Notes under the pieces: generated by a model
Told to the model about the DNA's origin: nothing
Database searches by the model: none
The model's input: only the letters and a program-made list of their open reading frames with translations
In this document: in pieces, positions 29,818-33,052 of the stretch
Position numbering within the stretch: the stretch's first letter is position 1
Layout of the letters: the number at the start of each line of letters is the position of its first letter
Made by a program: the position numbers and the translations under genes
Assembly: GCA_025363155.1 (NCBI GenBank)
Contig: JANYEL010000218.1
Location: 1-36,126, forward strand
Length of the DNA: 36,126 nucleotides
Direction of reading: 5' to 3'
Source: Moraxellaceae bacterium
Lineage (GTDB): Bacteria > Pseudomonadota > Gammaproteobacteria > Pseudomonadales > Moraxellaceae

Positions 29818-29959
29818 GGGATGTTCTTCCCTTTTAGATGAGCCTTATCTTTTAACACGCTATAAGTGAATCTAAACCGATATGTGGGGGAGAACAAGAG
29901 GGAGTTATTTTGCAGGTGAGTGCAGATGAGGGATTTTGATGTTTAGTCTGTTTATATGC

Positions 29960-30022
29960 GTAGACTGCGGGCTTGCCCCAGCTTGTGAGTTGGCTCAGTC
30001 GCTGGGGTGAACCTCGGTCTAC
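29960..30022. repeat. Imperfect 22-bp inverted repeat between HlyD and BrnA genes
   Basis: Arms 29960-29982 and 30001-30022 both start or end with GTAGAC/GTCTAC and share GCCCCAGC/GCTGGGG, with several mismatches in the middle. The ends resemble those of the palindrome at 1-68 (GTAG...CTAC). There is no T tract. Probably a degraded palindromic element. Confidence 0.5.
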
Positions 30023-30053
30023 ATTAATTGCTATATATCTTATAATTTAGCAG

Positions 30054-30299
30054 TTAAACATTTGATGAATGTGTCAACGCAACTTTTTCTAGACGTTCAG
30101 CAAGCCACACTTTGATAATAGATTGTCTGGTCACGCCGAGTTTGCTGGCTTCGCGGTCAAGTGAATCAACCATCCACGTCGGAAAATCGACATTCACACG
30201 TTTTTGTTGTTGCAGTACGCGCTTTGCTTTTGATAGGTTAAGCGAAGCGGTGAGATCAACGTCTTCATCAAACTGTTTTTCAAAATCTTTAGCTTTCAT
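30054..30299 (-). CDS. brnA: BrnA-type ribbon-helix-helix antitoxin
   Basis: An 81-residue antitoxin and autorepressor. The C-terminal ribbon-helix-helix is RVNVDFPTWMVDSLDREASK, followed by LGVTRQSIIKVWLAERLE. The N-terminal 30 residues are acidic and would wrap around the toxin. GAGGAGG lies 9 bases before the ATG, a strong ribosome site. It overlaps the last codons of the toxin gene by 11 bases. The order (toxin first, antitoxin second) is that of brnTA. Confidence 0.85.
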   Translation of the reverse strand: MKAKDFEKQFDEDVDLTASLNLSKAKRVLQQQKRVNVDFPTWMVDSLDREASKLGVTRQSIIKVWLAERLEKVALTHSSNV

Positions 30300-30552
30300 A
30301 GAGTGTTACCTCCTCAGTACGTGAACGACGAACGGAAATCAGTCGGATGTTTGCGCCTCTATAGGTGATCACCGCCGACCAATATTTATCATCAATTATT
30401 CCGATGATCAGATACCGCTGCTCATCTTCTGTTTTTGCAGGAATTTCCAAGAGGCTTGGATCATTCCATAAACTTTGGGCATCAATGAAATCAATGCCAT
30501 GTTTTGTAAGATTCGCCTGACTTTTGGCTTCATCGAATTCAAAGGTGAACGT
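30289..30552 (-). CDS. brnT: BrnT-family toxin, start codon ATG changed to ACG
   Basis: The minus strand from 30552 encodes an 87-residue frame that reads as a complete BrnT toxin, an RNase of the RelE-like fold. From the second codon it reads FTFEFDEAKSQANLTKHGID, with IPAKTEDEQRYLIIGII in the middle and TYRGANIRLISVRRSRTEEV at the end. No ATG, GTG or TTG lies in frame between the upstream TAA and this start; the first candidate is ACG at 30552-30550, exactly where the family's Met should be. An internal TTG would delete about 35 residues. The toxin is therefore probably translated very poorly or not at all, while the antitoxin behind it has a strong ribosome site. The frame has no stop or frameshift, so start loss would be recent, or ACG is used, or it is a sequence error. 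Confidence 0.75.
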   Translation of the reverse strand, partial: TFTFEFDEAKSQANLTKHGIDFIDAQSLWNDPSLLEIPAKTEDEQRYLIIGIIDDKYWSAVITYRGANIRLISVRRSRTEEVTLYES

Positions 30553-30561
30553 AGTATATAA

Positions 30562-30588
30562 ATTATACCTTTATTATATAAATATCAA
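30562..30588 (-). promoter_or_regulatory. Promoter of the brnT-brnA locus
   Basis: TATAAT at 30567-30562 is a perfect -10, with TTGATA 15 bases upstream as a possible -35. The -10 ends 9 bases before the ACG at 30552, so the message would start only 2-4 bases ahead of it, that is, almost leaderless. The AAGG upstream of the start overlaps the -10 and would not be in this transcript. The 15-base spacer is shorter than ideal. Confidence 0.5.
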
Positions 30589-30641
30589 GTAATGGAGGGG
30601 TGATTCAATTGTTTGGATTGATCGTCTGTGAAAAGCATTAG

Positions 30642-31424
30642 TTAGCTAATATTGATGACTTTTCTACATTTTGGAAAATTTGAACAGCCCCAAAACTTAT
30701 TGCCAATGTTTTGACCTTTCTTTGTTTCTCTCATAATCATTGGGCTTTGACATACTGGGCAGGTTTGAGCATCCGTTTTTTCTTTTTCAGCAACAATGGT
30801 TTTAACATGTTTTACATGTTCTCGATTGGTTTTGAAAGAAGGAGTGAGTCTGCCTGCTGTTATTTTCTTTGTAATTTCTGTCACTTGAGCGTCCGTTAAT
30901 ACCCGCTGCGTTTTTGATTTTATATATCGAATGTAGCCGCCACCGTAAGTGACATTTTCAGGCATATCGGTTTTGAATATACTCTTGCCGACAAAAACAA
31001 TAATGGAATGTATTTGTTGATCATTCAACTCCAATAAAGATTCCAGTGTTTTTACATGTTTATAGTTCTGGTGAAGTGGATTTTGAAATTTACTGGAATG
31101 CTTATAAATCTTTTGAGTCCACGTTTTCTGATGAGCATTGCCAAAGATCCAACCTTTCATATTTTTTGTTTCAACCACAAAAACGCCATATTTCGAAACA
31201 ATAATATGGTCGATTTGGGTGGTTCCATCTTCAGTTGGCAGGGTTACATTTTTGATTAAATGATATTTCTGTTTATCCAGAAAAAGCTTTGCAGTCAGAT
31301 TGACGATAAACTCACCCATCACGCCTTTGAACCAAGGCGTTTTGATGACAGCCACTAAAATCATAAAGGGAATCAGATACCAAAACACCCTGAATGTTGG
31401 AGTAATAATTGGTGTAGCATCCAT
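30642..31424 (-). CDS. NERD-domain nuclease with topoisomerase-type zinc ribbon
   Basis: A 260-residue protein. A membrane segment (about 12-28) is followed by a NERD domain (35-150) of the PD-(D/E)xK nuclease class: Gly37-Glu38, Asp72 (TTQIDHIIVS) and Glu85-x-Lys87 (VVETKN) are its catalytic places. The C-terminal 45 residues are a four-Cys zinc ribbon (CPVC, then CSNFPKC) of the kind found in topoisomerase I. DNA or RNA processing at the membrane is expected; such proteins also occur in mobile and defence regions. It lies 29 bases behind an unknown two-TM protein on the same strand. Confidence 0.88.
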   Translation of the reverse strand: MDATPIITPTFRVFWYLIPFMILVAVIKTPWFKGVMGEFIVNLTAKLFLDKQKYHLIKNVTLPTEDGTTQIDHIIVSKYGVFVVETKNMKGWIFGNAHQKTWTQKIYKHSSKFQNPLHQNYKHVKTLESLLELNDQQIHSIIVFVGKSIFKTDMPENVTYGGGYIRYIKSKTQRVLTDAQVTEITKKITAGRLTPSFKTNREHVKHVKTIVAEKEKTDAQTCPVCQSPMIMRETKKGQNIGNKFWGCSNFPKCRKVINIS

Positions 31425-31453
31425 TGTAAGTTATCGTTATTGCTAATTATTTA

Positions 31454-32086
31454 TTAGGCTGTTTTCATTTTTAGGAGCTCTGCGTCTAACTCGGATTTTG
31501 AATACAGTCGACGCATAGACTGATTTTGGAGGTCTAAAGACCAATTTTTTGGACCGATAATTCCTTCTTCGTTTACTTCGTCTTGCCATTTACCCTCAGC
31601 TGTTACGACCACAGTTCTCTTATCCAGAGGGAGAGAATCAATAAGCTCTTGAATATGAATTGATCCGTGAAAAGCTTCTCCAGGCTTAAGGTGAAGTTGG
31701 TCATCCGTTTGACCTGTATATGGTGGAGGCATAGGCCATTCGCCTCGATAAGTTTGGATAGAAAAATGTATGACACATAAAACATTATGATTTCTTTGAT
31801 TTTGAGTATCTAAAGACAATGTAGCCACTGGCTCTTTCTGGTAACCAAACCCAAAGTCCAATTGTGTCATCGGTTCGTTATTCACGGCTCTGTAGGTAAA
31901 ATATGTATACCAAATTAGACACACTAGTGTTGCAGTCAACACTGCAATAGTGGGGTCATATACAACTTCGGTCCAAAAAAATGGAGCAATAGAAAGTAAT
32001 ATCGAAATTAATGACGTAATCCATGCGATAAAGTATGCATGCCAAAATCTTTTTCTAGGAAGTAAACTAATTTTTTTAAACTTCAT
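31454..32086 (-). CDS. Uncharacterised two-TM protein
   Basis: A 210-residue protein of no family I know. The start MKFKKISLL at 32086 has GTGGG in front; longer in-frame starts lack a site. Two membrane segments lie near residues 20-60 (AWITSLISILLSIAPFF and IAVLTATLVCLIWYTYF). The remaining 145 residues look like a cytosolic beta-rich domain (TLSLDTQNQRNHNVLCVIHF, GEAFHGSIHI, RTVVVTAEGKW). It precedes the NERD nuclease by 29 bases, so the two are probably cotranscribed; a functional link is inference. Confidence 0.65.
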   Translation of the reverse strand: MKFKKISLLPRKRFWHAYFIAWITSLISILLSIAPFFWTEVVYDPTIAVLTATLVCLIWYTYFTYRAVNNEPMTQLDFGFGYQKEPVATLSLDTQNQRNHNVLCVIHFSIQTYRGEWPMPPPYTGQTDDQLHLKPGEAFHGSIHIQELIDSLPLDKRTVVVTAEGKWQDEVNEEGIIGPKNWSLDLQNQSMRRLYSKSELDAELLKMKTA

Positions 32087-32281
32087 AAAAACCCACATAT
32101 TTTCTGGAAAAATATTCTGCCTAACTACTCTTATGCGGCAGCTGTGACACATAAGATGGCAAATCCTGCTACATAAGAAACCTGACTGATTAAAGTTACA
32201 GGGTAAAAATTATTTTATATTCAATCGAAAACTATCATAGTTTGAATAGAAATAGAATCTTATCCGTCATTAACTACGACC

Positions 32282-33052
32282 TTAAACCAAAGCTACCAAA
32301 TCACAAAACCAAAACCCTTTAGTCTCAACAACCGATTTGCAAATATATTGATCTTCATCTTTGTCATCAGACTGAGTGTTAATCGGCATCGGGGCGGGCA
32401 ATGGACGATAAATCACTTCACCGAGCGTGACCTGAATCGGCTGACGATAAATCGGGCCTGCAAAACAAAAAGTATGGTATTCGCCATTTTCACCACACGG
32501 ATCGACATGCGCGGGCAACTCGGCAATAAATGAGGTGTTAATCTCACGCCCAGCCCATGACTGATCTAAATAACCATCATTAATACAACAGGTAATGGTT
32601 GAAAACCCTTGTGCCACAAATGTCTGAATAAGCATGGCAGTATTCGAATGCCACAGCGGAAACAACGCGGTTAAACCGACTTTTGCCAATTGCCGCTCAC
32701 GATATTCGCGTAAATCCTGCAAGAAAATATCGCCAAAAATCACATGCGTCACGCCTTGGGCTTTGGCTTTTTCTAAACCATCAGTCATTTGCTGTTCGTA
32801 TTCTTCATTGCTGCCCGCGCGTACCCAGACCTTAATCAACGGTAAACCAATCGCCTCCGCTTGCGCGTCCAATAATTCCTCGCGCACCCCATGCATGGAG
32901 ATGCGACCAAACTCCGCATTTAACGTCGTCATCAGCGTGACGACCTCGCAGCTTTGTTGTGCCTTATATAAAGCCATCGCGGAATCTTTGCCGCCGCTCC
33001 AACACATGAGTGCTTTTGGTTTTTCATTGGAAGATATGGATGAGTGAGTCAT
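32282..33052 (-). CDS. DUF71 ATP-pyrophosphatase (diphthine-ammonia ligase family)
   Basis: A 256-residue PP-loop enzyme. The ATP motif SGGKDS is at residues 19-24, followed by ALYKAQQ and LMTTLN. FGDIFLQDLREYRE in the centre and GRPINTSFI-like AGREINTSF near the C-terminus are conserved in DUF71 (COG2102). In eukaryotes and archaea the family amidates diphthine on EF-2. Bacteria lack diphthamide, so the substrate here is unknown and the ligase name is only a family label. It lies 55 bases behind the Cys-rich protein gene, same strand, possibly part of the fmt-rsmB operon. Confidence 0.85.
   Translation of the reverse strand: MTHSSISSNEKPKALMCWSGGKDSAMALYKAQQSCEVVTLMTTLNAEFGRISMHGVREELLDAQAEAIGLPLIKVWVRAGSNEEYEQQMTDGLEKAKAQGVTHVIFGDIFLQDLREYRERQLAKVGLTALFPLWHSNTAMLIQTFVAQGFSTITCCINDGYLDQSWAGREINTSFIAELPAHVDPCGENGEYHTFCFAGPIYRQPIQVTLGEVIYRPLPAPMPINTQSDDKDEDQYICKSVVETKGFWFCDLVALV

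What the first reader, a model, noticed from the sequence alone, without database searches (positions are those of the whole stretch)
30289..30599. BrnT toxin whose only defect is an ACG in place of the ATG start
The toxin frame is complete (87 residues, family motifs intact) but has no ATG, GTG or TTG in frame at the start; ACG sits exactly at the expected Met and differs by one transition. The TATAAT box ends 9 bases before it, so the message would be nearly leaderless, a form that normally needs AUG. The antitoxin downstream keeps a strong GAGGAGG site. This looks like a toxin silenced by one base while the antitoxin and autoregulation are kept, or a real non-AUG start that holds toxin low.
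Basis: partly seen in the sequence, partly recalled or inferred. Interest (0 to 1): 0.65.

Follow-up and report, generated by a model that had tools for sequence, protein, structure and literature searches.

The report
BrnT toxin gene missing its start
A bacterial self-poisoning gene is complete except for its start codon, which has changed to one that ribosomes hardly use, so it is probably switched off while its antidote gene stays on; a few relatives show the same kind of switch-off.

Summary
On the minus strand, 30552-30289, lies a complete 87-codon BrnT frame (PF04365, 91 bits) that begins with ACG. An in-frame TAA lies seven codons upstream, and no ATG, GTG or TTG is in frame before residue 35. 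TATAAT ends 9 bases before the ACG.

In relatives the -10 box, a dyad (GGTATA..TATACC) and the toxin start are packed the same way, so a near-leaderless start looks like a subfamily trait (transcript start not mapped). In 48 comparable relatives the second base of the start is always T; here it is C. The frame is otherwise clean.

Four other relatives have lost the start to ATT or ATA. In each, the nearest copy seen has ATG; two show clear decay; all four keep the antitoxin. In one genome the ATT copy against its ATG sister copy gives dN/dS 0.71, versus 0.02-0.06 between ATG copies.

Best reading: a recently silenced toxin with its antitoxin kept. Weak initiation at ACG is not excluded for the window, which has no close relative to test it. 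Toxin-antitoxin decay is known; start loss as its first step in a near-leaderless toxin is a small new detail.

The parts
30289..30552 (-). brnT frame: ACG (30552-30550), 87 codons, TAA (30291-30289)
   Evidence: PF04365 91 bits
30550..30552 (-). ACG at the start position; second base is T in 48 of 48 comparable relatives
30054..30299 (-). brnA antitoxin gene, ATG start, 81 codons, CopG_antitoxin PF12441 (29.3 bits against 28); overlaps brnT by 11 bases
30309..30315 (-). GAGGAGG Shine-Dalgarno site of brnA, 9 bases before its ATG
30562..30567 (-). TATAAT, -10-like box, ends 9 bases before the ACG
   Evidence: conserved in relatives
30583..30588 (-). TTGATA, -35-like box, 15 bases before the TATAAT (shorter than the 16-18 the scan asks for)
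   Evidence: TTG-A conserved in many relatives
30553..30569 (-). Dyad GGTATAATTTATATACT, presumed antitoxin operator, one base off the GGTATA..TATACC form
   Evidence: binding not tested
30571..30573 (-). In-frame TAA seven codons before the ACG

Best explanation
This is a horizontally acquired type II toxin-antitoxin module of the BrnT/BrnA kind whose toxin has recently been silenced by loss of its start codon. In this subfamily the -10 box, a dyad and the toxin start codon are packed into about 20 bases, so the message should begin about 0-5 bases before the start codon without a Shine-Dalgarno site, and toxin synthesis rests on a 5'-terminal AUG. With ACG there, initiation should fall to near nothing. 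brnA has its own Shine-Dalgarno site on the same message, so antitoxin and repression should persist. Shown: the anatomy, the homologues' start codons, the open frame and complete antitoxin, and start loss with decay elsewhere. Inferred: the transcript start, the near-absence of translation, acquisition by transfer, and BrnA binding to the dyad.
For: Frame complete; K17, H18 and E86 stand at the numbers that PMC10714953 gives (passages; not aligned to that protein). Second start base T in 48 of 48. Packed geometry conserved. Leaderless messages in E. coli start at AUG, with GUG/UUG/CUG much less efficient (PMC9031893 passages; also PMC5622118 passages). Of 135 scorable loci 17 have a damaged toxin, and 15 of the 17 keep a complete antitoxin; of 118 loci with open frame and canonical start, 3 lack an antitoxin match, all within 48 bases of a contig end. 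L205 (ATT) against L197 (ATG) in one genome: dN 0.055, dS 0.078, ratio 0.71, against 0.02-0.06 in the 10 of 15 pairs of ATG copies whose dS could be computed; L200 has ATA plus two TAA; L187 has ATT and lacks one codon. L042 has ATT ATT where its nearest relative L210 has ATT ATG. No match in 3 of 3 genus sisters; the flanks lie about 50 bases apart in sister G003.
Against: The window frame shows no decay, so relaxed selection is not shown here. Frames of L187 (ratio 0.04-0.11) and L042 (0.09 against L210) are still mostly constrained, and L200 apart from its stops too (0.03-0.08 against ATG copies). GTG and TTG occur at this place in other open copies. A promoter scan lists a different minus-strand pair, TTTATA/TATACT, whose -10 ends at 30553, right before the ACG (7 sites found against 4.4 in shuffles); used, it would start the message inside the toxin frame. 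A predicted hairpin pairs part of the brnA Shine-Dalgarno site (GGAG with CUCU), so brnA translation may depend partly on brnT translation. Measured ACG efficiencies could not be read.
Confidence: 0.7

Rival explanations
1. ACG is a working but very weak start that holds toxin low; the frame is kept by selection on that small amount.
For: Frame with 0 of 84 private residues and 0 departures from 37 near-invariant columns; GTG and TTG occur at the same place in open copies; IF3 level and infC mutants that relax codon choice change leaderless expression (PMC9031893 passages).
Against: No ACG in the fetched relatives; the other start-lost copies each have a nearest copy with ATG and two show decay; a clean frame is also found in ordinary copies (L022, L004, L023) and fits a recent change.
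Confidence: 0.15
2. The base is wrong in the assembly, or a minority strain state, and the organism has ATG.
For: Draft genome of 237 contigs with 6.54% contamination; no second sequence of this locus was found.
Against: The contig is syntenic with genus sister G003; a single substitution exactly in a start codon is an unlikely error; start-lost copies occur in other genomes, including ones of low contamination and few contigs.
Confidence: 0.07
3. The toxin starts elsewhere: at an internal or near-cognate codon, or by frameshift from an overlapping start in another frame.
For: ATT codons stand in frame at residues 20 and 23, and a TTG and an ATG lie just downstream in another frame.
Against: Starts at residue 20 or later would remove K17 and H18; the first canonical in-frame codon is residue 35; no upstream start.
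Confidence: 0.04

Closest known systems
BrnT/BrnA type II toxin-antitoxin (PF04365; Brucella abortus brnTA)
   Same: Toxin-first order, overlapping genes, BrnT domain, CopG/RHH-type antitoxin, dyad over the promoter
   Different: Toxin start is ACG; protein activity and operator binding untested here
Decaying chromosomal toxin-antitoxin loci (PMC7167474 passages; the ccdO157 paper it cites was not held)
   Same: Toxin lesion with the antitoxin kept
   Different: The review passages name deletions and nonsense mutations; here the only lesion seen is the start codon of a near-leaderless toxin
Leaderless mRNAs
   Same: Start codon predicted 0-5 bases from the message's 5' end, no Shine-Dalgarno site
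   Different: Transcript start not mapped; ACG instead of AUG

Membership tests
BrnT toxin family | Match to PF04365 over the full domain | tested here: met
   91 bits against 34.5, profile 1-77 of 77
BrnT toxin family | Residues reported as important (K17, H18, E86) | tested here: met
   Present at the same numbers (residues from PMC10714953 passages; no alignment to that protein made)
BrnT toxin family | Toxin gene followed by an overlapping BrnA/CopG-type antitoxin gene | tested here: met
   11-base overlap; PF12441 29.3 bits against 28
BrnT toxin family | Expressed, ribonuclease-active toxin | not testable with these tools
   No canonical start; expression and activity need the bench
Leaderless mRNA | Transcript begins at or within a few bases of the start codon | tested here: inconclusive
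   Conserved spacing predicts it; the scan lists another pair; no transcript map
Leaderless mRNA | AUG as start | tested here: not met
   ACG
Decaying toxin-antitoxin locus | Lesion in the toxin gene with the antitoxin kept | tested here: met
   Start codon lost, brnA complete
Decaying toxin-antitoxin locus | Relaxed selection on the toxin | tested here: inconclusive
   None seen in the window copy; seen in the start-lost copy L205

The most novel reading that the evidence does not exclude
Near-cognate starts (ACG, ATT, ATA) at the 5' end of near-leaderless BrnT messages are a reversible, fidelity-gated low-expression state: one base sets the toxin near zero in normal growth, but it can be made when IF3 is low or 70S initiation dominates, while the cell keeps the antitoxin and the frame ready.
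Probability: 0.1. Interest if true: 0.6.

Novelty: new member of a known kind. Interest (0 to 1): 0.3.

Why it matters
It is an early, clean snapshot of how a toxin-antitoxin module may be disarmed: toxin first, by one base, antitoxin still in place. The packed promoter-operator-start design may make start loss a more frequent first lesion here: 5 of 17 damaged toxins, 4 of them with an otherwise open frame, against an expected 4-9% in a rough mutation count. Gene finders that want ATG, GTG or TTG would miss or truncate such genes (inference).

Tried and rejected
Conserved ACG start: looked at in the loci fetched, namely 80 kept of 124 confirmed in genome contigs, 1 viral locus, up to 30 best loci each from the family, order, class and phylum samples (read) and the relatives of two start-lost genomes. 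None had ACG at the place. Of the plasmid records (3, 22) the start was read in 2 only (L208 ATG; L209 lacks its N-terminal part); the 2 phage records were not read. Most loci are distant (27-44% identity).

Operator plus ACG pattern in viral contigs: 5 stretches, none with a BrnT match behind it; four of the five share the same surroundings.

Contamination: made unlikely by synteny with G003. Upstream start: excluded. ATT as a conserved start in the groups of L187 and L042: not borne out. L187 and L205 both have ATT in one genus, but L205's nearest copy L197, in the same genome, has ATG, so I take them as separate changes.

Start-loss share: suggestive only. At expected shares of 0.06 and 0.09, P for at least 4 of 17 is 0.016 and 0.060, for at least 5 of 17 0.0026 and 0.0145; at 0.12 and 0.15 (also computed) 0.138 and 0.244, and 0.045 and 0.099. 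Loci are related, open frames are easier to find, and the indel rate is guessed.

Rows dropped: one search counted 49 of 87 full-length loci (of 94 kept rows, at 58% identity or more); 38 did not fit the dyad pattern or its offset. In one search, 2 of 137 loci were at contig ends; antitoxin-only loci were not sampled, because BrnT was the query; L208-L220 came before no tally and are not in it. In one search, 5 of 15 pairs of ATG copies gave no dS.

Full report
What is there. On the minus strand the window holds a toxin-first brnTA pair downstream of a gene with a NERD domain (30642-31424). The toxin frame, 30552-30289, has 87 codons and matches BrnT_toxin PF04365 with 91 bits; the antitoxin, 30299-30054, matches CopG_antitoxin PF12441 with 29.3 bits against a cut-off of 28. 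The toxin frame begins with ACG. Seven codons upstream is an in-frame TAA, and no ATG, GTG or TTG is in frame before residue 35. TATAAT ends 9 bases before the ACG, with TTGATA 15 bases before it, and the 17-base dyad GGTATAATTTATATACT runs from the -10 box to the base before the ACG. The promoter scan, which demands a 16-18 base spacer, does not list this pair. It lists one minus-strand pair here, TTTATA/TATACT, with its -10 directly before the ACG, among 7 sites in the region against 4.4 expected. The promoter assigned here therefore rests on conservation.

Comparison of starts. Eighty loci were kept of 124 confirmed in genome contigs, and more came from genome samples. Many show the same packed arrangement: TTG-A box, about 15 bases, GGTATA..TATACC, start codon. 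Of 49 loci whose dyad abuts the start in the window's register, the window has ACG; the other 48 have 42 ATG, 4 GTG, 1 TTG and 1 ATT, and the second base is T in 48 of 48. The base before the start is T in the window and in 4 of 48 others, C in 44. A nearly leaderless toxin message is thus a likely trait of the subfamily, by inference from geometry.

State of the frame. Against 50 homologues of equal length the window toxin has 0 of 84 residues not seen elsewhere and 0 departures from the 37 columns at least 94% conserved. As a yardstick, 15 other copies scored 0-6 private residues and 0-3 departures, and L022, L004 and L023 also scored 0 and 0. K17, H18 and E86 stand at the numbers reported as important in PMC10714953 (passages). 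dN to 21 near homologues is 0.08-0.18, with dS of 1.3 or more, or not computable. If changes were neutral, about 44% of amino-acid changes would hit a near-invariant column, so zero hits bound the neutral period to about five such changes, roughly 0.03 per site (my arithmetic). Either the start was lost recently or some protein is still made. In a FastTree tree of 51 copies the window sits among copies with ATG or GTG.

Origin and place. No match was found in 3 of 3 genus sisters, and in the family search (102 of 348 genomes with some match) the best other match was 37% identical. In sister G003 the flanks of the window block 29900-32297 lie about 50 bases apart. The pair therefore probably arrived with, or beside, a variable block, and the contig belongs to this genus.

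Start loss elsewhere. Of 137 distinct loci at 54% identity or more, 2 are at contig ends. Of the other 135, 118 have an open frame with a canonical codon near the start (most downstream one: 108 ATG, 7 GTG, 3 TTG), 12 have a broken frame, and 5 have an open frame without a canonical start: L001 ACG; L042, L187 and L205 ATT; L206, whose N-terminus is unrelated. L200, counted as broken, has ATA and two TAA. L187's genus is probably Vibrio: a copy 94% identical to the L204 peptide lies on a plasmid of Vibrio sp. HDW18, at almost the same coordinates as L198 on its contig (inference). In the search around L187's genome, 10 of 119 genomes had a match at 1e-20; 8 of these are in its genus and hold 10 copies, 7 with ATG, 2 with ATT and 1 with ATA. 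L205 and L197 lie in one genome and differ by dN 0.055 and dS 0.078, ratio 0.71, on few changes; the 10 of 15 pairs of ATG copies with computable dS give 0.02-0.06. L187 lacks one codon; its ratios are 0.04-0.11. L200 apart from its stops is still constrained (0.03-0.08 against ATG copies). For L042 the nearest relative found, L210, has ATT ATG where L042 has ATT ATT; their ratio is 0.09. The antitoxin is complete in 15 of 17 damaged loci, and in all five start-lost loci, window included.

Mechanism. In E. coli leaderless messages start at AUG, with GUG, UUG and CUG much less efficient (PMC9031893, passages); they are said to require AUG (PMC5622118, passages). ACG here should thus almost abolish toxin synthesis, while brnA has GAGGAGG 9 bases before its ATG and can be translated from the same message. 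A weak predicted hairpin pairs part of that site, so some dependence of brnA on brnT translation is possible. The expected net state is toxin off, antitoxin and repression on. Decaying chromosomal modules with inactive toxins are described in PMC7167474 (passages), and start loss as a first lesion fits that kind. A rough count expects 4-9% of inactivating events to be start losses; 5 of 17 were seen, 4 with an otherwise open frame. That is suggestive only.

Limits. Read support, transcript start, protein level and toxin activity are untested. The primary BrnT paper, the 64-codon initiation paper and the ccd decay paper were not held. A fidelity-gated low start remains open for the window copy but has no comparative support. 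Literature searches were 20 of 58 listed; 20 of 1,007; 10 of 3,640; 5 of 5; 12 of 12; 15 of 73; 12 of 116; no listed title is about non-AUG starts of BrnT, which does not show that none exists.

Noticed in passing
L220 (G1551:C42): Open frame of at least 156 codons running from BrnT straight into a BrnA-like sequence; BrnT-BrnA fusions are reported in PMC11980606 (passages).
   Followed up: no
window 29945-30060: Dispersed repeat just behind brnA, with short imperfect copies on contigs C105, C165 and C121 and beside the NERD gene of sister G002.
   Followed up: partly
window 29900-32297: Block with brnTA, the NERD gene and an unassigned gene (31454-32152) that is missing between the same flanks in sister G003; NERD lies elsewhere in G003, and in G002 it is not followed by brnTA.
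   Followed up: partly
L002 (G000:C189:3795-4034): A second, distant BrnT (35% identity) in the same genome.
   Followed up: no
L209 (Aliivibrio fischeri plasmid pKB1A97-67): Annotated BrnT toxin of 74 residues whose N-terminal part (about 26 residues) and usual promoter are replaced by unrelated sequence, while an antitoxin-like frame follows; probably a truncated toxin.
   Followed up: partly
L142, L143, L144, L146: Viral contigs sharing an operator-like 20-mer followed by ACG, without a BrnT match behind it.
   Followed up: no
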